Assembly (NCBI GenBank): GCA_015488335.1
Contig: WFNZ01000053.1
Span: forward strand, 1 to 42,709
Length of the DNA: 42,709 bases
From: Thermovibrio sp.
GTDB lineage: Bacteria; Aquificota; Aquificia; Desulfurobacteriales; Desulfurobacteriaceae
Reading direction: 5' to 3'
The notes beneath the pieces are model-generated. The model saw only the letters and a program-made list of their open reading frames with translations, did no database searches and was not told where the DNA came from. Shown here in pieces: positions 30,198-42,709 of this stretch. Numbering within the stretch: position 1 is the stretch's first letter; every line of letters starts with the position of its first letter. The position numbers were made by a program, and so were the translations under genes.

Positions 30198-30719
30198 CTA
30201 CTGCTCCTTAAGCTCTTTCAGGAACTTAACGAAGTAGTCAAAGCCCGTATATAGGGCAACAAAGGCAGAAAGTATCAGAAGGAGCTCCCCAATACTCTTA
30301 AACCCGGAAAGGAGCAGAATAACAGAAGCCATTATGAGAACGGTTTTCAGCTTCCCTCCTTTAGAGGCCGGAATAACAAGCCCCCGGGAAGCTGCAATAG
30401 CCCTCATTCCCGTAACGGCCTCCTCCCGCCCAACTATGGTTATAACGGAGTAGGGATCGCAGAGCTTCACGTAGGCAAGTGAGATGAGAGTTGAAGAGGT
30501 AAGGAGCTTGTCTGCAACCGGATCTAAGAGAATTCCAAGGCTTGTCACAGACCTCTGTTTTCTGGCTATGTAGCCGTCTAAAAAGTCTGTAACGGCCGAA
30601 ACTATGAAAAGCAACAGGGCCAGAAGGAAATGGCCCTTAACTATGAAAACAACGATAAACGGCAACAGAAGAATTCTTAAAAGGGTGAGGAAGTTTGGAA
30701 CCGTCTTTACCCTTCCCAT
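30198..30719 (-). CDS. pgsA: CDP-diacylglycerol-glycerol-3-phosphate 3-phosphatidyltransferase
   Basis: PgsA makes phosphatidylglycerol phosphate. The CDP-alcohol phosphotransferase signature DGYIARKQRSVTSLGILLDPVADKL is complete (DG..AR........G...D...D), starting near residue 47. The protein has 173 aa and several membrane helices. The ATG overlaps the dnaN stop (TGATG), linking phospholipid synthesis to replication genes; acidic phospholipids such as its products reactivate DnaA in Escherichia coli. Confidence 0.95.
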   Translation of the reverse strand: MGRVKTVPNFLTLLRILLLPFIVVFIVKGHFLLALLLFIVSAVTDFLDGYIARKQRSVTSLGILLDPVADKLLTSSTLISLAYVKLCDPYSVITIVGREEAVTGMRAIAASRGLVIPASKGGKLKTVLIMASVILLLSGFKSIGELLLILSAFVALYTGFDYFVKFLKELKEQ

Positions 30720-31813
30720 CAGACCTTCATCGGCATCACAACGTTTTTGAGCTGAGGCTCATCTTCACTGGCTATAAGAACGGGCGTTAGCTCTTCGCCG
30801 AACTTCATTGTAATGGTTTCTCCGTCAAAGGAGCTGATGGACTCAATCATGTGGATAATGTTGAAGTTGATGGAGAAGGACTCCCCTGAATAGTCAACGG
30901 GAATTGTTACTTCTGCCTCTTCAGGGGATTCTCCCTCAACGTTCCTCGCCTGAAGGGTGAGCCTTCCATCTTCAAGATTAAAACGAACAGCCATAATCTC
31001 ATCTTTGTCAAAGATGATTGAAACCTCTTTCAGGGCTGAGAGGAGCTCCTCCCTATCGGCAGACATTGTAATGGGATTATCCTCTGGAATAACCACAGTG
31101 TAGTCGGGATACTCCCCCTCTATGAGGGATGTCCACATAACCGTATCTCCACTGTTGAAGTAGAGCTTGTTTCCCTGCTCCGCAACAGAGACCTCCTCAC
31201 CCTCTCTGAGGACCTTCTTAAGCTCGCTGAGAGATTTTTTCGGAATAATGGCACTGAACCCTTCAGAAGGAACTAAAACCTCGTAGAGGGCCAATCTGTG
31301 GCCGTCGGTGGCAACTGCGTGGAGACGGTCTCCGAGGGAGCGGAGAAGAACTCCTGTTAAAACGTATCTGGTTTCATCCCTGCTGGCTGCGTAGGAGACT
31401 TTCTTAATCGCCCTGTCTATCTCCTCTGAGGGAAGGGTTATTGGGTAGGAAGAGGGGAGCTCTATCTCGGGAAACTCATCTGGTGGAAGGGTGGCAAGTG
31501 AAAACCTTGAGTTGGCAGATTTCACAGTAAGTTTAGAGTCGGAAGTCTCAATGTCTATCTCATCTCCTGTAAGTGAAGAAAAGAGCTTTGCTGCCTTGTT
31601 AGCGTTGACTGTTACTTTCCCTCCCTCTTCAACTTCACAGTCTATAACTGTGGAAACTCCTATCTCAAGGTTCGTGGCAGTCAGCCTTAAAGTATTATCC
31701 TCAGCCTCAAAAAGGATGTTAGAGAGAATGGGGATGGTTCCCCTCCTGTCGGCGGCAGATGAAGCCAGTTTGACCGCATCCCGAGCTTTCAATTTGCTGA
31801 CCCTAATTTTCAT
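30719..31813 (-). CDS. dnaN: DNA polymerase III beta subunit (sliding clamp)
   Basis: The clamp encircles DNA and tethers the replicative polymerase. The 364-residue protein has the three-domain pattern: KIRVSKLKARDAVKLASSAADRR at the start, TGVLLRSLGDRLHAVATDGHRLALYE in the middle, and the C-terminal NVVMPMKV in place of the usual VMPMRL end. The ATG has AGGAG 8 nt upstream in the AT-rich part of oriC. The order dnaA-oriC-dnaN is the common bacterial one. It overlaps pgsA by one base. Confidence 0.97.
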   Translation of the reverse strand: MKIRVSKLKARDAVKLASSAADRRGTIPILSNILFEAEDNTLRLTATNLEIGVSTVIDCEVEEGGKVTVNANKAAKLFSSLTGDEIDIETSDSKLTVKSANSRFSLATLPPDEFPEIELPSSYPITLPSEEIDRAIKKVSYAASRDETRYVLTGVLLRSLGDRLHAVATDGHRLALYEVLVPSEGFSAIIPKKSLSELKKVLREGEEVSVAEQGNKLYFNSGDTVMWTSLIEGEYPDYTVVIPEDNPITMSADREELLSALKEVSIIFDKDEIMAVRFNLEDGRLTLQARNVEGESPEEAEVTIPVDYSGESFSINFNIIHMIESISSFDGETITMKFGEELTPVLIASEDEPQLKNVVMPMKV

Positions 31814-31899: not shown

Positions 31900-32050
31900 T
31901 AAGATAAAAGTTCTTGCCTCTCTTTGGCTTAAGCCCAAAAAGTTATCCACATAGTGTGGATAACTTGCCGATTTTCCTGTGGATAACTGGTGTGGATAAC
32001 TTTTTCCTGTGGATAACTTTTCAACGTTCCCGTGAGTTATCCACACCTTT

Positions 32051-33475
32051 TCAGTTATCCACATAATTATCCACATAGTTATCCACACCGGTGTGGATAA
32101 CTCGGGTTGACCTATCTACCGCTTCTTTTATCTCAAGTTCTAACCTGTCTAACCTCTTCTTCAGCTCCTCGTCCTCTTTGAGGAGCTCCTCAACCTTCCT
32201 TACAGCGTGGATGACTGTTGTGTGGTCGTCCCTCTTAAAGGCGGCTGCTATCTGTGTGTAGGGGTAGTTTCCCACCTTCTTGGCCATAAACATTGCCACC
32301 TGCCTTGCAAGGGCTACCTGCTTTTTCCGGCTGGGGCTGTCTAAGAGCTCCACACTTACTTCAAACTCCTTTCCAACCATCTCTTTTATGATTTTCAGCG
32401 AAATCTCTTTAATTTTTCTCTCTTTTCTCTCCCTGTCGTCTTCAGGAAGGAAGAGCTCCTTTACAAGTTTCTCATTTATAGGTCTTCCCTCTAAAGTGGC
32501 TTTTGCCTTAAGCTTTACCAGAGCTCCCTCAAGCTGCCTTATGTTTGACTTTATCATCGTTGCAAGGAGCTTTATGACCTTGTCGCTTACCTCTATTCCC
32601 TCCTCTTCTGCCTTTCTCTTCAGAATTGCTACCCTCGTTTCAAAGTCCGGCGGCTGGATGTCTGCTATGAGCCCCCACTCAAAACGGCTTCTGAGCCTCT
32701 CTGTAAGGGTTGGTATGTCCTTTGGAGGTCTATCGCTGGTTAGAACAACCTGCTTTCCTGCATCGTAGAGGGCGTTGAATGTGTGGAAGAACTCAATCTG
32801 TGTTCTCTCCTTACCACCTATGAACTGGATGTCGTCTATGAGGAGAACGTCAACGCTTCTATACTGCTCTCTGAACTTGTGGATGTTGTCGGATTTTAAC
32901 GCCTCTATCAGCTGATTCATGAATGTTTCCGTTGTTGTGTAGACAACTTTTCTGTTTGGGTCTTTCTTCAGAATGTAGTTTCCTATTGCCTGCATCAGGT
33001 GGGTCTTTCCAAGTCCTACGCCACCGTAGATAAATAAAGGGTTGTAGGCCTTTCCGGGGTTCTCTGCCACTGCTAAAGCGGCAGCATGGGCAAACTGGTT
33101 GCTTGAGCCCACAACGAAGTTTTCAAAGGTGTATTTCGGGTTGAGGTTTGAGTTTATCTTTGGAGTTTCCTGAGGGAGTTCTCTCTTTTTCTTCTCTAAC
33201 AGCTGGAAGAGGTCTGGCTGTTTGGGAGTTTCTGCCTCTTCGGGGGAGAGGAGCTCCACCTTCAGCTTTTTCTTAAAGGTCTTCTCTGCCGCCTCTTCAA
33301 GGAGTTTCAGATACTGCTTCTCAAGAAGGCTCTTAACAACTTTATCTCTGGTTTTGAGCTTCAGGTTTTCGCCGGTGAGTTCTATCAGCTTCAGGTCTTT
33401 AAAGAGGTTTTTGTAGAGCCCCGGCTTTACCCTCTTCTTTATCTCCCCCAAAAAGGCCTTGAAAGCTTCAGCCAC
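32051..33475 (-). CDS. dnaA: Chromosomal replication initiator DnaA
   Basis: DnaA binds its boxes at oriC, forms an ATP-dependent helix and melts the origin. Domain I is at the N-terminus, the AAA+ domain has Walker A at 151-158 (GGVGLGKT) and Walker B VDVLLIDDIQFI, and domain IV carries the DNA-binding signature DDHTTVIHAVRKVEELL. The start is GTG 33475, overlapping the glycosyltransferase stop by 8 nt. Oddly, residues 459-474 (VIHTGVDNYVDNYVDN) follow domain IV and are encoded by four DnaA boxes, so the gene ends inside its own origin. Confidence 0.97.
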   Translation of the reverse strand: MAEAFKAFLGEIKKRVKPGLYKNLFKDLKLIELTGENLKLKTRDKVVKSLLEKQYLKLLEEAAEKTFKKKLKVELLSPEEAETPKQPDLFQLLEKKKRELPQETPKINSNLNPKYTFENFVVGSSNQFAHAAALAVAENPGKAYNPLFIYGGVGLGKTHLMQAIGNYILKKDPNRKVVYTTTETFMNQLIEALKSDNIHKFREQYRSVDVLLIDDIQFIGGKERTQIEFFHTFNALYDAGKQVVLTSDRPPKDIPTLTERLRSRFEWGLIADIQPPDFETRVAILKRKAEEEGIEVSDKVIKLLATMIKSNIRQLEGALVKLKAKATLEGRPINEKLVKELFLPEDDRERKERKIKEISLKIIKEMVGKEFEVSVELLDSPSRKKQVALARQVAMFMAKKVGNYPYTQIAAAFKRDDHTTVIHAVRKVEELLKEDEELKKRLDRLELEIKEAVDRSTRVIHTGVDNYVDNYVDN

Positions 33476-34591: not shown

Positions 34592-36295
34592 ATGAGGTTT
34601 TCAAGGGCATTTATACCTACGAAGAAAGAGAGCCCTGCAGATGCGGAAATTCCCAGCCACAAGCTCTTAATAAGGGCTGGGTTTATAAGGAAAGTTGCCT
34701 CTGGACTTTACGATATTCTTCCACTTGGAGCTCTTGTTATAAGAAAGATAGAGAGGATTATCAGGGAAGAGATGGACAGGGCCGGAGCTCAGGAAGTGAT
34801 CCTCCCCATTATGCACCCGGCGGAGCTGTGGCTTGAGAGCGGAAGGTGGGACGTTTACGGCAAAGAGATGATAAAGTTTAAAGACCGCCACGAGAGGGAC
34901 TACTCCTTAGCTCCAACGGCAGAAGAGGTAATAACAGACCTTGTTAGGAAAGAGGTTCGCTCCTACAAAGACCTTCCGCTGAACCTCTACCAGATTGGGA
35001 GGAAATTCAGGGACGAGATAAGACCCCGTTTCGGCCTTATGAGGGCCAGGGAGTTCATAATGAAAGACGCTTACTCATTCCACGCAACAGACGAGGACGC
35101 AGAGAGAGAATACTGGAACATGTATGAGACCTACTCCCGGATATTTAAGAGAATGGGGCTTGAGTTTAAGGCCGTTGAGGCAGACACTGGAGAAATTGGC
35201 GGAAAGTTCTCCCACGAGTTTATGGTTATAGCAGATACGGGAGAGGGAAAGCTGGTCTACTGCGAGAAGTGCGGATACGCTGCAAGTACAGAGAAGGCCG
35301 AGCAGTTAAAACCTGAAGTTCCTAAAAATAGAGAGGAGCTCTTTAAGCCTGTTGAGAAGGTTCACACCCCAAACGTTAAGAGGATTGAGGAGGTTTCAGG
35401 GTTCTTGGGAGCTCCCCCGGAAAACATTTTAAAACTCCTTGTTTACATAGTTGACGGCCAGCCCGTTGCAGTTGCAATAAGGGGAGATAGGGAAGTTGAG
35501 GAGACAAAGCTGAAGCAGTTTTTCAGAGGTAAAGAGGTTCGCCTTGCAACAGACGAGGAGATAGAGAGGTTCACCGGCCAGCCTAAAGGTTTCCTCTCTC
35601 CAATCGGCTTGAAGATTCCTGTTTACGCAGATTACTCCGTTATCCCAATGGTTAATTTCGTAGCTGGAGCGGGAGAAAAGGACTACCACCTGAAGAACGT
35701 TAATTGGGGAAGAGACTTTGAAGTTAAGGAGTTTATAGACGTTGCAGAGGTGAGGGGTGGAGACCCATGCCCGAAGTGTGGAGCTCCCCTCATTGAAAAA
35801 AGAGGCATTGAGGTTGGTCACATCTTCAAGCTCGGAACGAAATACAGCGAGGCGATGGGGGCTCTCTTTGTTGATGAGAACGGCCAGGAAAAACCTATGA
35901 TTATGGGTTGCTACGGGATAGGCGTAACCAGAGTTATGGCCGCAGCAGTTGAGCAGAACCACGACGAAAACGGAATAATCTGGCCTGTTGAGATAGCTCC
36001 CTTTGAGGTTATCGTTATCCCTGTAAACGTTAAAAACGACGAGATTAGAGAAGTTGCCGAGAGGATTTATGAAGAACTGAAAGAGGCTGGCTTTGACGTT
36101 CTTATAGACGACAGAAACGCCCGCCCCGGCTTTAAGTTCAAAGATGCAGACCTGATAGGTATTCCATACCAGATAATCGTCGGCAAAGGCGTTAAAGACG
36201 GCCTTGTTGAGCTGAAAGAGAGAAAGACCGGCAAGAGGAAAGAAGTCAAGATTGAAGATACCGTTTCAGAGCTTAAAGGGTTGTTAAATAGATAA
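34592..36295 (+). CDS. proS: Prolyl-tRNA synthetase (bacterial type)
   Basis: Charges tRNA(Pro). The 567 residues follow the bacterial class II layout: motif 1 region near GLYDILPLGALVIRKIERIIREEMDRAGAQEV, motif 2 (RDEIRPRFGLMRAREFIMKDAYSFH), the editing INS domain of about 170 residues between motifs 2 and 3 (GFLGAPPENILKLLVY to about 390), motif 3 (MGCYGIGVTRVMAAAVEQNHDENGIIWP) and the anticodon-binding C-terminus. The ATG has GGAGGAG upstream. It is divergent from the glycosyltransferase gene. Confidence 0.98.
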   Translation: MRFSRAFIPTKKESPADAEIPSHKLLIRAGFIRKVASGLYDILPLGALVIRKIERIIREEMDRAGAQEVILPIMHPAELWLESGRWDVYGKEMIKFKDRHERDYSLAPTAEEVITDLVRKEVRSYKDLPLNLYQIGRKFRDEIRPRFGLMRAREFIMKDAYSFHATDEDAEREYWNMYETYSRIFKRMGLEFKAVEADTGEIGGKFSHEFMVIADTGEGKLVYCEKCGYAASTEKAEQLKPEVPKNREELFKPVEKVHTPNVKRIEEVSGFLGAPPENILKLLVYIVDGQPVAVAIRGDREVEETKLKQFFRGKEVRLATDEEIERFTGQPKGFLSPIGLKIPVYADYSVIPMVNFVAGAGEKDYHLKNVNWGRDFEVKEFIDVAEVRGGDPCPKCGAPLIEKRGIEVGHIFKLGTKYSEAMGALFVDENGQEKPMIMGCYGIGVTRVMAAAVEQNHDENGIIWPVEIAPFEVIVIPVNVKNDEIREVAERIYEELKEAGFDVLIDDRNARPGFKFKDADLIGIPYQIIVGKGVKDGLVELKERKTGKRKEVKIEDTVSELKGLLNR

Positions 36296-36307: not shown

Positions 36308-36853
36308 CTACCGGACCGTCTCTACAATCAGTTTTGAGTTGAAAAATCTGACTTCAGGTTGTCTCCTTGAGAAAATTTTTATTAGAGTTTCTGCGCTTTC
36401 AATCTGGTCTTTTACAGCTGAAATCAGTTTGTTAAGTTCTTTTTCAGACAACTCGCTTATTGCTATGGCGAAATCAAAACCTATGTTGTGTGTAAAGAAC
36501 CTTTTGTCTATGAACTCCTTTCCTCCGAGGACCAGGCCGTATCTGATATACGGGTATATCTCTTTATGTTTAATCGCCTTTGTAGAATAGGTTATGACCT
36601 CGTGAGAACTCAAGCTTTTATATTTTGTTTCAAGAACAACTAAAGGAAGATTGTTGTTTTCTCTAACAATTACTATATCTGCCTGGAATGCGTGATTTCC
36701 TCTTCTCGGGTTTAACGGTGTGTTTGGTTCAAACTCAAATCTCTCATTTACCACTACCTGATAGAGTAAATTCTGATGTTCTCTAACTCTGTAGTTTGGG
36801 AGTTCCTTCTCTAAAAACTCAGCAATTTCTCTCCTGAATTCTGACTCTCTCAT
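36308..36853 (-). CDS. PD-(D/E)XK-type nuclease-like protein
   Basis: A 181-residue protein with a plausible nuclease core: D59 in AFQADIVIV and E75-T-K77 in LPLVVLETKYKS, i.e. D-x15-E-x-K, as in restriction-endonuclease-like folds, including the N-terminal domain of type I HsdR. The N-terminus is a helix (FRREIAEFLEKEL) with YRVREHQNLLYQVVVNERF. It is the last gene of a minus-strand cluster, 11 nt after the PLD-HerA gene, so the two are likely expressed and may work together. HerA ATPases are often paired with nucleases. The target is unknown. Confidence 0.7.
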   Translation of the reverse strand: MRESEFRREIAEFLEKELPNYRVREHQNLLYQVVVNERFEFEPNTPLNPRRGNHAFQADIVIVRENNNLPLVVLETKYKSLSSHEVITYSTKAIKHKEIYPYIRYGLVLGGKEFIDKRFFTHNIGFDFAIAISELSEKELNKLISAVKDQIESAETLIKIFSRRQPEVRFFNSKLIVETVR

Positions 36854-36864
36854 GCTTTTCCTCC

Positions 36865-38838
36865 TTAGTTTATTTCTGTTAAAACGGGAAATGGAACTGC
36901 TAAGCCGCTGATTACTCCGCTGCCGGTCTGGAGCGTTGGCAGTAGAGAGGTTATGTCTCTGCCGGCAAACTCTACAAAGGTTTCTACTGCCTGCAGATCG
37001 TTGACGTTGATTATTCTGAACATTGCCTGTGTGTTTGTTTGGGCCAGAACGTATTTGCTGACCTGGGCCGGTCTCTGTGTTATTACTACGAGGCCTAAGT
37101 TGAACTTCCTTCCCTCTGCTGCGATTTTCCTTGCGGTGTTAAGGGCTAAGTTCTTTTTGTCTGCTGAAACATCTCCGTAGCTCTTTTCAGGGGCGAAGTT
37201 GTGGGCTTCCTCAAGGATTAAGAGCCTTCTCTTTCTGTCTTTTCTGTTTTTGAAGAAGAGCTCCTGCATGAAAAGGCCTGCAAGGTTTACCCTTGTCTGC
37301 GGGTCTGTTATTTTATTCAGGTTCAGTATGAAAATTAAGGGCTTCGGTTCTTCGTTGGGGTTAAGAAGCTCCTCTAAATCTTTGGCAACGTCTTCCTGAT
37401 TTTCCCACTTTCCTGATAGGGTTTTGGTAACGTAGGTGTCTGAGGTTAGCGGGTTGTTCCCATCTTCGTCTTCTATCTGAGAGAGAAGTCCTTTAAGGTC
37501 TCCTGTTTTAAAGCCGGAGCTCCCTATATCGGGCTTTACCCACTTGGTTATTATGTTTCTGTTTTTCTTGGCTGTTCTGCTGTTGCCGGAGATTAAATGG
37601 CTGTATCCCAGCTCTTTTATCAGCTCCTCAACTTCTTCAGGGTAAATGGGGAAGAGGATGTCTGAAATTTCTACTTCTTTAATGAGTTTCGGGTTTACTC
37701 CTAAGTCTATTAATCCCTGTTTATACTCGCCGTGGGGGTCTAAGATGAAAACTTCCGGCGGATTTTCTGTTTCAACGGCTCTCTTTATGAAGAGTTTTGT
37801 GAAGTGGCTCTTTCCAGAGCCTGTTGTTCCGAGAACTGCCATGTGTTTTGTGATTACTTCTTCAAGGTCTATAAAAACCGTTATGTTGCTGTTTCCCTCT
37901 AAATTTCCAATTTCTATTGGTGTTTTCATCTCTTTTCCTGAGAAGTCCTTTTTCATTACGTTACTTAGAGTCTCTTTTGAAGCTCTGTATATTCCGTTTC
38001 CAACGTCAAAGGGTTTTAGAGGTGTCTGGAGCTTCTGGCCGTTTATCTCTCCAACAACCTGAGCAACTGCTATCCTTACCCTATCTCCGTTCTCGTTGAG
38101 GTATGAGTAGGTAGCGGCCTTTTTCCAGCTGTTATCCTTCCTTCCTGAGAATAGGAGTTTAAACTGGTCTAAAGATCCAAATACCTGAGACTCACTTCCA
38201 GAAAAGGGGTTTGCAAAGAATCCCATGTCGTATGAGTAGATGCTCTCTATCTTTCCTAAGATTTTCCTTTCTCCGTCCCTTACCTCAACGTAACTCTGTT
38301 CTGTGATTTCAGGGTCTAAAAGGATAAACTCAAAGGAGTTTGACTTTACAGGGTTCAGCGCAAAGCCGATGAGGTCGTCTGAGAAGATAACAGTTCCAGG
38401 GTCTTCTTTTATCTTCTCAAAGTAGTCTGTAAGCTCTTTTACCTCCTCTCCGTCTGATGTGTCGTAGTAGACGGCTACTTCTATGTTTCCCTTTGAGTAT
38501 TCAGACATTCCGGCCTCTGTGAAGTTGGCAGAGCCTACAACGGCCTTTTGATCGTCTACAACTATGAACTTTGCGTGGAGACGGTTGTTGAGATAAATTC
38601 TTCCTCCCTTTTCCCTTATCGTTTTGAAGACAATTTCGTCTGTTATGAGGAGATCGCGGAGCTCCGACCCTCTTAAGATAACCTCAATCTCTATTCCTTT
38701 TTCTGTGTCAACGTTCTCAAGGAGCCTTCTTACAAGTGAGCCTTTAAGCCACGCAGAGGCTATCTTTATGCTCTTTTCCGCCTCTCCTACAATTCTCTCT
38801 ACTTCTGTGTAGATGTTGTCTCCGTTGAGGGTTCTCAT
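36865..38838 (-). CDS. PLD-domain / HerA-type ATPase fusion protein
   Basis: A 657-residue two-module protein. The N-terminal 130 residues are a phospholipase-D-type nuclease domain with one HKD motif (LHAKFIVVDDQKAVVGSANF, H and K at about 88 and 90). The C-terminal half is a HerA/FtsK-type ATPase: GTTGSGKS, ILDPHGEY, Walker B LLILEEAHNFAP, and AEGRKFNLGLVVITQRPAQ. HerA proteins form hexamers that pump DNA. I start at the second ATG (38838), which overlaps the upstream stop as ATGA and suits GGAGG better than the ATG at 38847. A DNA-pumping nuclease, possibly antiviral, is inferred. Confidence 0.88.
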   Translation of the reverse strand: MRTLNGDNIYTEVERIVGEAEKSIKIASAWLKGSLVRRLLENVDTEKGIEIEVILRGSELRDLLITDEIVFKTIREKGGRIYLNNRLHAKFIVVDDQKAVVGSANFTEAGMSEYSKGNIEVAVYYDTSDGEEVKELTDYFEKIKEDPGTVIFSDDLIGFALNPVKSNSFEFILLDPEITEQSYVEVRDGERKILGKIESIYSYDMGFFANPFSGSESQVFGSLDQFKLLFSGRKDNSWKKAATYSYLNENGDRVRIAVAQVVGEINGQKLQTPLKPFDVGNGIYRASKETLSNVMKKDFSGKEMKTPIEIGNLEGNSNITVFIDLEEVITKHMAVLGTTGSGKSHFTKLFIKRAVETENPPEVFILDPHGEYKQGLIDLGVNPKLIKEVEISDILFPIYPEEVEELIKELGYSHLISGNSRTAKKNRNIITKWVKPDIGSSGFKTGDLKGLLSQIEDEDGNNPLTSDTYVTKTLSGKWENQEDVAKDLEELLNPNEEPKPLIFILNLNKITDPQTRVNLAGLFMQELFFKNRKDRKRRLLILEEAHNFAPEKSYGDVSADKKNLALNTARKIAAEGRKFNLGLVVITQRPAQVSKYVLAQTNTQAMFRIINVNDLQAVETFVEFAGRDITSLLPTLQTGSGVISGLAVPFPVLTEIN

Positions 38839-39125
38839 TCTTCCCATTCCTCCCTTAGGTCTTTAATCTGTTCTCTCAATTTGGCCAGTTTCTTTTCAAG
38901 TTCTTCCATACTCTTTGCTCCAAACATTTTCATCATCATCTTTCTGTCTGATTCTGCAAATTTTTCCTGGACAGGTTTTATATACTTCTCATACGCCTCT
39001 ATGACCTTTTTCGGCGGGGGGCTATTAACTATCTTTTCAAGCTCTTCGTAAGTGAAGCCTCCTTCTATCCTTACTGCGGCGGGAGCTCCCTCCTCAAGTC
39101 TCTCCTTTTTCTTCCTCTTTGCCAT
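38835..39125 (-). CDS. Small charged helical protein, 96 aa, unknown
   Basis: The protein is rich in Lys, Glu and Arg, beginning with a basic stretch (AKRKKKERLEEG) and ending in a heptad-like coiled coil (SMEELEKKLAKLREQIKDLREEWEE). No family is recognised. Its stop overlaps the PLD-HerA start, so it is probably an operon partner, possibly an adaptor of that ATPase. The ATG has GGGAAGAGG upstream. Confidence 0.75.
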   Translation of the reverse strand: MAKRKKKERLEEGAPAAVRIEGGFTYEELEKIVNSPPPKKVIEAYEKYIKPVQEKFAESDRKMMMKMFGAKSMEELEKKLAKLREQIKDLREEWEE

Positions 39126-39143: not shown

Positions 39144-39539
39144 TTATTCAACTGGAACCCAGCCCTTCTCGGTCCAGCGGTAGGGCGTGTCGCTCTCTGG
39201 CCTTTTCCAGATGAAAAACTCCCTCTCACGGGGCAGGTGATAGATAAAGGCCTCAATCTCCTCTCCATTCAGTCTGAACTTCTCTAAAGACCTTGTGTAA
39301 AAGCTCGGATACCCTTCTAAGTAGTCTAAGTTTTTCAGCGTCTTCTCATCTACCCGGTAGATTTCAACTTCTACGGGAGCTCCCTCCTCTCCCGGAACAA
39401 CTGCCGGGTAGCTGTAGTGTCCTAAGATAAATTTTTTGTGGGAAATTCCCGTTCCCAAAAACTGAGAGTTTTTTAAAAAGCTGTGGTTGTAAAAACCTCT
39501 CTTTAGAGTTCCGTAAACGGCTACTGTAAAGGTTTTCAT
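39144..39539 (-). CDS. Gamma-glutamylcyclotransferase (GGCT/AIG2-like) family protein
   Basis: The 131-residue protein starts FTVAVYGTLKRGFYNHSFL, the hallmark YGTLxxG of the GGCT-like fold, and has the conserved LDYLEGYPSFYTR block whose Glu is the usual catalytic acid. The family cleaves gamma-glutamyl amides to 5-oxoproline or acts on similar amine adducts. It sits between the FGase-like gene and the small charged protein and has its own ribosome site (GGGAGAGG), right after a terminator-like hairpin. Confidence 0.85.
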   Translation of the reverse strand: MKTFTVAVYGTLKRGFYNHSFLKNSQFLGTGISHKKFILGHYSYPAVVPGEEGAPVEVEIYRVDEKTLKNLDYLEGYPSFYTRSLEKFRLNGEEIEAFIYHLPREREFFIWKRPESDTPYRWTEKGWVPVE

Positions 39540-41104: not shown

Positions 41105-41527
41105 TTACTCAAACGGGATGTATCTTTCGGCAGTTTCGGTAAAAAGTTCTTTGAACTCATCCTTACTCAATCCGTACTTTTCAGGAACAAACGAGATTTC
41201 ACTGTAGATTCCTTCAAACCCTTTTCCGCACCCTTCTAAGAATCTGACGAGGGCCCTTACAACATAGAGGAGCTGCGGTCTTGCGTTTTCGGGGAGCTCC
41301 GGGTCAACCACCCTTTCAAAGTAAGCGGTTATCTGGTCTCTGTATTTGAGGAAGAGCTCTTTCAGGAGAAGTCCTACTTCAAAGTTTTCTTTAGAGGGTT
41401 CTAAAAGTAGAGGTAGTTCAACAAGCCCGTGAATCAGCCTTTTAAGGTTCTCCTCAAGAAGAACTCCCTTTTCAGATAGCAGGAACTCCCTCAGGGCTTC
41501 TGTTATTAGCTCTCTTAAGGGCTCAAT
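41105..41527 (-). CDS. Helical unknown protein without canonical start codon
   Basis: On the minus strand a frame is open from just after a TAA near 41552 to TAA 41105, yet contains no ATG, GTG or TTG before a GTG at 41311. The codons from about 41527 read like real protein (EPLRELITEALREFLLSEKG, then VGLLLKELFLKYRDQITAYFERVVDPELP), so starting at 41311 would cut a normal-looking helical protein to 68 aa. An ATT at 41525-41527 overlaps the ankyrin stop (ATTGA), with GGAAGAG before it, and may be the start, giving 140 aa. A ribosomal frameshift or a sequence error joining it to the ankyrin gene is the alternative. Family unknown. Confidence 0.6.
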   Translation of the reverse strand: MEPLRELITEALREFLLSEKGVLLEENLKRLIHGLVELPLLLEPSKENFEVGLLLKELFLKYRDQITAYFERVVDPELPENARPQLLYVVRALVRFLEGCGKGFEGIYSEISFVPEKYGLSKDEFKELFTETAERYIPFE

Positions 41528-42709
41528 CTCTTCCGGAAATCTGGATTCTTTTTAGCCTTTCTACTCCTCCTAAAATGATTTCGGCGGGAAGTCTCTCTAT
41601 TCTTTCTTCAGGGAGTCTGTAGAGCTCCGCTGATAGCTCCAGCTTCCCGTGGATGAGGAGCTCCCTCAGTATCCTCAGGGCTTCTTTTCTAAAGTCCTCG
41701 TCTTCCGATTCACTGTAGAGGTAGTTAAAGTCTTCTCTCATAAGCTCTTCAAACTTTCCAGGGAATAGCAGGGTTAAGACAAGGGGAAGTTCTGAGGGTA
41801 CTGCATCGGCTTCATCAAGTTTTGGAGCTATAAGTTCTAAAATTCCTTCAATTTCCGGATCTTCTTCCTTTAAAGCGTCTCCGCCGGAGCATTTAAGGAG
41901 AAGGTGATAGAGAGTTCCTGTAATATCTTCCCAATCTTCAGGTGTTAATTCCTCTTTTTCAAGGATTTTCTTAACTATCAGCTCTGTTCTTCTTATCTCT
42001 CCCTCTTTCGGAATACAGGTTCCACAGGGAACCCAGAGTTCGTCCCTTGCTGTAGCCATCTCAACGAGCCCTTTTAAGACCTCTTCCAACCAATTGTTTT
42101 CGTGGTTTAGAAAAAAATCGGTGATTTCCTCAAACCCTAAAAAACGGGCGAGGTCTATCGGTTTGAGGCCATGCTCGTTTTCAACATCAGGGTTGGCTCC
42201 AGAGAGGAGCAGGAACTCAACAGCTTCTTTTCTGTTTCTCTCTACAGCTTTGTGGAGCGGAGTATTTCCCTCTCCGTTTTTCTCGTTTATCTGGTCTTTG
42301 AAAAGCTCAAGGACTTGAACCTGCCCTTCTGCAGCAGCGGTGTGAACCGGGAGATTTCCGAAATTATCGCCGATTTTTTTGAGGAGCTCCCACAGCTTCT
42401 CATCGGTTTCTTTCAGAGCTTTTATGAAAGCTACGTTTCCTCTTTCAGCGGCAAGGTGAAGGGGAGTTTTTCCGTTCCTGTTTTTAAGAATGCTCATAAG
42501 CCTTTTCCGGTCAATTTTTCCATTTGAAACTTTTTCCTGAAAGTTTTTGATGATTTCAACAGATACTTCGTAATTTCCACAGAGGGCAGCAATGTGTAGG
42601 AGAGAGTTTCCGTTTGAATTTTTGACCGTTGTATACCTTCCATTTTCAGTTAACTTTTTGACTGTTGAAATATCTCCTGAAACAACAGCCCTTTTTAATA
42701 CTTCAGAAA
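41523..42709 (-). CDS. Ankyrin-repeat protein (partial, runs off the right edge)
   Basis: The frame is open to the window end, so the true start lies outside; an ATG at 42497 is internal to a repeat array. At least four to five ankyrin repeats are visible (NGNSLLHIAALCGNYE, NGKTPLHLAAERGN, GNLPVHTAAAEGQ, GNTPLHKAVERNRKEAVEFLLLSGANPD), followed by a capping repeat and about 190 residues of charged helical sequence with a CGTC motif (WVPCGTCIP). Such repeats bind partner proteins. It stands at the head of the accessory cluster. 394 residues are visible. Confidence 0.88.
   Translation of the reverse strand, partial: SEVLKRAVVSGDISTVKKLTENGRYTTVKNSNGNSLLHIAALCGNYEVSVEIIKNFQEKVSNGKIDRKRLMSILKNRNGKTPLHLAAERGNVAFIKALKETDEKLWELLKKIGDNFGNLPVHTAAAEGQVQVLELFKDQINEKNGEGNTPLHKAVERNRKEAVEFLLLSGANPDVENEHGLKPIDLARFLGFEEITDFFLNHENNWLEEVLKGLVEMATARDELWVPCGTCIPKEGEIRRTELIVKKILEKEELTPEDWEDITGTLYHLLLKCSGGDALKEEDPEIEGILELIAPKLDEADAVPSELPLVLTLLFPGKFEELMREDFNYLYSESEDEDFRKEALRILRELLIHGKLELSAELYRLPEERIERLPAEIILGGVERLKRIQISGRD

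What the first reader, a model, noticed from the sequence alone, without database searches (positions are those of the whole stretch)
36308..39125. PLD-HerA fusion with a PD-(D/E)XK nuclease and a small coiled-coil protein: candidate defence system
A DNA-pumping HerA ATPase carrying its own single-HKD nuclease domain overlaps the gene of a small charged partner and is followed 11 nt later by a second, unrelated nuclease-like gene. Other HerA-nuclease pairs (for example SIR2-HerA and DUF4297-HerA) protect against phage. The three-gene set with two nuclease types on one hexameric motor is a combination I do not know as a named system.
Basis: partly seen in the sequence, partly recalled or inferred. 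Interest (0 to 1): 0.75.

Follow-up and report, generated by a model that had tools for sequence, protein, structure and literature searches.

The report
DNA motor with built-in nuclease
The conserved part of this three-gene group is one gene for a DNA-pumping ring motor that carries its own DNA-cutting domain, found across heat-loving Aquificota; it probably destroys or trims DNA, and the two genes beside it here are local neighbours, not parts of a fixed three-gene defence system.

Summary
All three ORFs are real and the domain calls are right. The middle gene is a PLD(HKD)–HAS-barrel–HerA ATPase with intact nuclease and ATPase motifs; its start is better placed at 38838 (ATGA overlap). The three-gene set is not conserved. 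In 136 Aquificota genomes the PD-(D/E)XK gene sits beside PLD-HerA in only two, both of the window's genus; in a third member of the genus an unrelated protease–HerA–AAA cassette fills that slot. The 96-aa protein is found only in the genus.

PLD-HerA itself is one clade spread through Aquificota, with a few copies outside. Subfamily 1 (window) is patchy, sometimes broken, once on a plasmid (Aquifex ece1), and twice the last gene of a type III-A CRISPR operon beside CalpL/T/S. Subfamily 2 sits among core genes. In Hydrogenothermaceae its order is PLD-herA–obg–nurA; in Aquificaceae it is the only HerA, and NurA is nearly always present.

Most likely this is a self-sufficient motor–nuclease that translocates dsDNA and cuts it with its own HKD domains. 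Subfamily 1 probably acts against invading DNA; subfamily 2 probably does NurA-linked DNA processing. No activity has been tested. I found no description of the fusion in the papers held here.

The parts
36865..38838 (-). PLD-HerA: N-terminal HKD (PLD) nuclease domain, HAS-barrel, HerA/DUF87 ATPase; 657 aa from the preferred start (660 aa from 38847)
   Evidence: Pfam PLDc_2, HAS-barrel, DUF87; AF2 pLDDT 82; Foldseek best match Thermococcus HerA of HerA-NurA, E 8e-35; start choice
38554..38577 (-). HKD motif HAKFIVVD (residues 91-98); the following GSAN is at 38535-38524
   Evidence: H91, K93, D98, G105, S106, N108, E123 invariant in 13 divergent family members; coordinates
37807..37830 (-). 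Walker A GTTGSGKS (residues 340-347)
   Evidence: intact in all aligned full-length copies; coordinates
37201..37224 (-). Walker B LLILEEAH (residues 542-549)
   Evidence: E546 and E547 invariant; coordinates
36308..36853 (-). 181-aa PD-(D/E)XK-like nuclease with its own ribosome-binding site 11 nt after PLD-HerA; lineage-specific neighbour
   Evidence: D59...E75-x-K77; beside PLD-HerA only in G000 and G002 of 136 genomes; stand-alone relatives
38835..39125 (-). 96-aa charged protein (23 K/R, 21 D/E) with helical-looking C-terminus; genus-specific neighbour, translationally coupled to PLD-HerA
   Evidence: 70-80% identical in four genomes of the genus, no clear relative elsewhere in the phylum; always GGACT-96aa-PLD-HerA
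39144..39539 (-). gamma-glutamylcyclotransferase-like (GGACT) gene; flank shared by the genus, probably unrelated
   Evidence: Pfam GGACT E 1e-22
34592..36295 (+). proS, one edge of the variable interval (the other edge, dnaB, lies beyond this contig)
   Evidence: proS and dnaB are adjacent in G006; the interval holds different genes in G001-G004

Best explanation
The functional unit is PLD-HerA alone: a HerA-family hexameric dsDNA translocase whose six N-terminal HKD domains sit on the HAS-barrel face, where partner nucleases dock in other HerA complexes. Pairs of HKD domains form active sites, and DNA pumped through the ring is cut by the motor's own nuclease. The window copy belongs to a mobile, dispensable subfamily that most likely destroys invading DNA. 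The 96-aa and PD-(D/E)XK genes are genus-level neighbours in a variable proS-dnaB interval, at most local accessories. Shown: domain architecture, conserved active-site residues, monophyly, distribution, neighbourhoods. Inferred: hexamer, domain placement, HKD pairing, translocation-coupled cleavage, anti-invader role.
For: Architecture and motifs kept across the family. PLD-HerA is one clade against HerA without PLD (SH-aLRT 99). Fold matches HerA of HerA-NurA, SIR2-HerA and DUF4297-HerA; in HerA-NurA the nuclease docks on the HAS domains (PMC12977600) and in DUF4297-HerA it stacks on the hexamer (PMC11291478). No partner gene is constant. The three deepest outside copies are in genomes (incomplete MAGs) without detected NurA or canonical HerA, so no partner is obligatory there. 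For a defence role of subfamily 1: patchy in Desulfurobacteriaceae (11 intact of 22 genomes); broken copies in G008 and on Aquifex plasmid ece1; last gene, start overlapping the gene before it, of type III-A operons with CalpL/T/S in two genera; beside type III methylases; interval variable and holding cas1/cas2 in G004.
Against: Many subfamily-1 copies lie beside ordinary metabolic genes. Defence-type neighbours number 5 of 14 sites against 0 of 16 for subfamily 2 (p 0.014), but the sites were classified by me, and the difference fades if two PADLOC hits in subfamily 2 are counted (p 0.14). Subfamily 2 is core-like, which suggests that repair could be the family's basic role. No activity is tested, and the PLD-domain model is less certain than the motor.
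Confidence: 0.55

Rival explanations
1. PLD-HerA, the window copy included, is a DNA-repair or end-processing motor: a HerA-NurA-type machine in which HerA has gained a PLD nuclease and still works with NurA; the defence neighbours are incidental.
For: PLD-herA-obg-nurA order in Hydrogenothermaceae (G024, G039, G041, G052, G058 and further Persephonella-type loci L097, L098, L099, L124). In Aquificaceae PLD-HerA is the only HerA (0 of 25 have the canonical one); 21 genomes have NurA plus PLD-HerA (one a contig-edge fragment), 3 have neither, 1 has NurA only (p 0.0017 uncorrected for kinship). Motor fold closest to HerA-NurA HerA.
Against: The window genome also has canonical HerA and NurA elsewhere, and so do all 22 Desulfurobacteriaceae examined, half of which lack PLD-HerA, so the window copy looks dispensable. 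The PLD domain may occupy the NurA docking face. NurA of Aquificaceae is divergent. Three outside genomes have PLD-HerA without NurA. The three genomes lacking both are one genus.
Confidence: 0.28
2. The trio is a dedicated three-component defence system: two nucleases and a small regulator on one motor.
For: Tight coupling: ATGA overlap and 11-nt gap. The same order in G002 with about 92% identical PLD-HerA and nuclease, so the linkage outlived a speciation.
Against: The nuclease is beside PLD-HerA in 2 of 136 genomes; the slot holds another cassette in G003 and another gene in G001; relatives of the nuclease occur without HerA. The 96-aa gene is genus-specific.
Confidence: 0.1
3. Subfamily-1 PLD-HerA is a DNA-degrading ancillary arm of type III-A CRISPR immunity under CalpL/T/S control, and lone copies such as the window's are remnants.
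For: cas10-csm2-csm3-csm4-csm5(-cas6)-PLD-HerA with divergent CalpL/T/S in G010 and G020, different genera, neighbours 38-60% identical. CRISPR genes in the orthologous interval of G004.
Against: Only two operons; the other subfamily-1 copies examined have no type III genes nearby; PLD-HerA has no cyclic-nucleotide sensor domain.
Confidence: 0.07

Closest known systems
HerA-NurA (archaea, Deinococcus-Thermus)
   Same: Closest motor fold (Thermococcus HerA, Foldseek E 8e-35); HAS-barrel plus DUF87; linked to nurA by gene order in Hydrogenothermaceae and by co-occurrence in Aquificaceae.
   Different: Carries its own N-terminal PLD nuclease; not in an operon with mre11/rad50 in the loci read here; the window copy is not near nurA.
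DUF4297-HerA anti-phage complex
   Same: HerA motor coupled to a dsDNA nuclease; fold match E about 1e-24 to 1e-28 (PMC11291478).
   Different: Nuclease is PLD/HKD and in the same chain; no DUF4297 gene nearby.
SIR2-HerA (Nezha, GAO_19)
   Same: HerA motor of the same fold.
   Different: No SIR2 gene; NCBIfam HerA_antiphage scores far below its cut-off (128 against 800 bits).
PLD nucleases driven by ATP-dependent motors (CglI/NgoFVII type restriction enzymes; HKD-SF2 PbeA)
   Same: HKD nuclease coupled to a nucleic-acid ATPase (PMC5737866 and PMC10853773; weak RE_NgoFVII match).
   Different: The motor there is an SF2 helicase-type enzyme, not a HerA ring; no specificity or modification subunit here.
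HerA/FtsK capture systems and DndH
   Same: HerA/FtsK motor fused or linked to nucleases as proposed anti-invader systems (PMC10853773, PMC12839542).
   Different: Their companion proteins were not seen beside PLD-HerA; no PLD-HerA fusion turned up in the passages read.

Membership tests
HerA ATPase family | HAS-barrel followed by DUF87 RecA-like core with Walker A and B | tested here: met
   Pfam DUF87 E 4e-24, HAS-barrel E 2e-4 (slightly under cut-off), invariant Walker residues, HerA fold
HerA ATPase family | hexameric ring, DNA-stimulated ATPase | not testable with these tools
   monomer prediction only
PLD/HKD nuclease | HxK(x)4D(x)6GSxN motif | tested here: met
   H91, K93, D98, G105, S106, N108 invariant in 13 divergent members; PLDc_2 E 1e-13
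PLD/HKD nuclease | two HKD motifs brought together in one active site (in single-motif enzymes by dimerisation) | not testable with these tools
   one motif per chain; dimerisation not modelled
HerA-NurA system | NurA encoded next to HerA | tested here: not met
   window copy is not near nurA, which lies on another contig; met for Hydrogenothermaceae copies of subfamily 2
HerA-NurA system | NurA in the same genome | tested here: met
   but the window genome also has canonical HerA
SIR2-HerA / DUF4297-HerA defence | SIR2 or DUF4297 partner gene | tested here: not met
   no such domain in the adjacent genes
   2 of 136 genomes, one genus
Type III CRISPR ancillary effector | encoded in a type III locus | tested here: not met
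   no cas genes beside the window copy; met for G010 and G020
PD-(D/E)XK nuclease (181-aa gene) | D...(D/E)xK active site in a restriction-endonuclease-like fold | tested here: inconclusive
   motif conserved in three homologues; Pfam below cut-off; model of low confidence

The most novel reading that the evidence does not exclude
PLD-HerA is one family with two lives. In Aquificaceae, where canonical HerA is lost, it is the motor for NurA, so that two unrelated nucleases (built-in PLD and docked NurA) work on one translocating ring; a mobile branch, including the window copy, has been turned into a one-gene weapon against invading DNA and in places joined to type III-A CRISPR-CalpL/T/S operons.
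Probability: 0.22. Interest if true: 0.72.

Novelty: new variant of a known kind. Interest (0 to 1): 0.5.

Why it matters
Known HerA defence and repair machines use a separate nuclease protein. Here motor and nuclease are one chain, which makes translocation-coupled cutting testable with a single thermostable protein and point mutants. If subfamily 2 is the working HerA of Aquificaceae, it explains why their NurA has no canonical HerA. If subfamily 1 is anti-viral, it adds a candidate DNA-targeting gene to type III-A loci with CalpL/T/S, for which the sources read here do not say which genes the released sigma factor switches on.

Tried and rejected
Three-gene system: rejected on distribution. 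Match to a named system: PADLOC and NCBIfam give only generic HerA, DrmC and mad8 similarity far from any equivalog. Virus origin: no PLD-carrying relative among viral contigs, only HerA-core matches; none for the nuclease. Defence-island enrichment: suggestive for subfamily 1 only and sensitive to how sites are counted. Comparing NurA catalytic residues across families: the alignment was too poor to conclude. Fold of the 181-aa protein: model too weak. Literature search for a PLD-HerA fusion: nothing in the held open-access papers; subscription papers, such as the 2004 survey of the FtsK-HerA superfamily (recalled from memory), could not be checked.

Full report
What is there. Three ORFs on the minus strand: a 96-aa charged protein (39125-38835), a 660-aa PLD-HAS-barrel-HerA protein (38847-36865) and a 181-aa PD-(D/E)XK-like protein (36853-36308). 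The HerA start at 38838 fits better: relatives start there and it forms an ATGA overlap preceded by GGGAGG. Pfam places PLDc_2 at residues 21-146, HAS-barrel at 169-266 and DUF87 at 311-527. HKD residues and both Walker motifs are invariant in 26 Aquificota copies and in 13 divergent copies that include other phyla. The AF2 model (mean pLDDT 82; motor mostly above 90, PLD domain mostly 55-90, weak at 209-255) matches HerA of the Thermococcus HerA-NurA complex best, then SIR2-HerA and DUF4297-HerA.

The trio is not a unit. In 136 Aquificota genomes the PD-(D/E)XK protein has a strong match only in G000 and G002 (same genus) and in G071, where no PLD-HerA lies on the 5.7-kb contig; G051 has a weak match. 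A plasmid relative (pHRM2a, 32% identity) also stands without HerA. The 96-aa protein occurs only in G000-G003. In this genus the genes lie in an interval bounded by proS and dnaB. The two are adjacent in G006; the interval holds cas1/cas2 and other genes beyond proS in G004, and PLD-HerA in G000-G003. The slot between PLD-HerA and proS holds PD-(D/E)XK in G000 and G002, but a trypsin-like/HerA-like/AAA_5 cassette in G003; in G001 the contig breaks after a different gene. In the window itself the contig ends before dnaB, so the far edge is inferred from relatives.

PLD-HerA is the conserved part. It is a single clade against archaeal, canonical and NurA-linked defence HerA in a 63-row tree (SH-aLRT 99; quick tree, some long branches). 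Six outside copies come from MAGs labelled WOR-3, Thermotogota, Archaeoglobaceae, RA.bin96, Desulfobacterales and Synergistetes; those nearest the Aquificota copies could be mis-binned contigs. There are two Aquificota subfamilies. Subfamily 1 holds the window, the other Desulfurobacteriaceae copies and a minority of Aquificaceae copies. Subfamily 2 holds Hydrogenothermaceae and most Aquificaceae copies. G046 and Aquifex aeolicus VF5 (G060) carry both; in the latter the subfamily-1 copy is broken and lies on plasmid ece1.

Subfamily 1 context. In the 22 Desulfurobacteriaceae genomes 11 have an intact copy, G008 a broken one and the rest none. Sites differ between genera. In G010 and G020, different genera, PLD-HerA is the last gene of a type III-A operon: cas10, csm2-5, then in G010 a cas6-like ORF, then PLD-HerA, whose start overlaps the preceding gene. 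CalpL (SAVED-Lon, E about 1e-73), a CalpT-position and a CalpS-position protein lie divergently upstream; CalpT and CalpS are named from position and weak PADLOC matches, and the cas6 call is mine from sequence. CalpL/T/S is known from Sulfurihydrogenibium (PMC11417357). G009 and G046 have a type III or N6/N4 methylase next door. Other copies sit beside metabolic genes. My count is 5 of 14 sites with defence-type neighbours against 0 of 16 in subfamily 2 (p 0.014), weakening to p 0.14 if two PADLOC hits in subfamily 2 are counted.

Subfamily 2 context. Copies lie among core genes such as coaE, dtd, lolA and obg. In Hydrogenothermaceae PLD-herA-obg-nurA is a recurrent order, in G058 with gaps of 46 and 20 nt. 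In the 25 Aquificaceae genomes of the panel there is no canonical HerA; 20 have an intact PLD-HerA and one a contig-edge fragment, all 21 with NurA; three genomes of one genus have neither; one has NurA only. The association is strong but kinship reduces its weight. Three outside genomes have PLD-HerA without NurA or canonical HerA, though these are incomplete MAGs.

Mechanism. Inference from fold and known complexes: a hexamer pumps dsDNA through its pore; six HKD domains on the HAS face pair to make active sites and cut the DNA as it emerges. In HerA-NurA the NurA dimer docks on the HAS domains (PMC12977600), and in DUF4297-HerA the nuclease layers stack on the hexamer and activate it (PMC11291478); here the nuclease is covalently in that place. 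None of hexamer, cleavage or translocation was tested. For the window copy, mobility, dispensability and some defence neighbours favour destruction of foreign DNA; for subfamily 2, core context and nurA favour a chromosomal DNA-processing role.

Known or new. HerA-nuclease partnerships are known; a PLD-HerA single-chain family was not found named in the held literature, PADLOC or NCBIfam. Absence there is not proof of novelty. I class it as a new variant of a known kind.

Noticed in passing
window 31943-32100: Ten perfect TGTGGATAA (DnaA-box) matches in 158 bp between the presumed dnaN gene (364 aa, 30719-31813, named from position) and the DnaA gene; 0.2 expected in the whole window. A likely chromosomal replication origin, about 5 kb from PLD-HerA.
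   Followed up: partly
L202 7705-10542 with L045 1003-10079; L203 10543-13393 with L048 1988-9962: Type III-A CRISPR operons with divergent CalpL/T/S-like genes ending in PLD-HerA in two Desulfurobacteriaceae genera.
   Followed up: partly
L190 3287-10108 (G000:C47, same coordinates): In the window's own genome, a 575-aa NurA-domain protein, a 641-aa HerA and a 919-aa protein with a helicase-like N-terminus in a row: a candidate HerA-NurA-helicase defence module.
   Followed up: no
L038 1677-7969 (G003): Trypsin-like protease, HerA-like ATPase matching PADLOC 'type III coevolved' HerA (E 5e-41) and AAA_5 protein as a tight cassette directly after PLD-HerA.
   Followed up: partly
L076 264-1196 (G071): The homologue of the 181-aa nuclease carries an extra N-terminal region of about 120 residues (310 aa in all), which suggests a stand-alone restriction-type enzyme.
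   Followed up: no
window 41523-42707: Ankyrin-repeat protein cut by the contig end; length varies between members of the genus (394+, 538, 207 aa).
   Followed up: no
L193 6155-8153 and L194 4506-6447: obg-nurA adjacency in Aquificaceae with a divergent NurA and no canonical HerA in the genome.
   Followed up: partly
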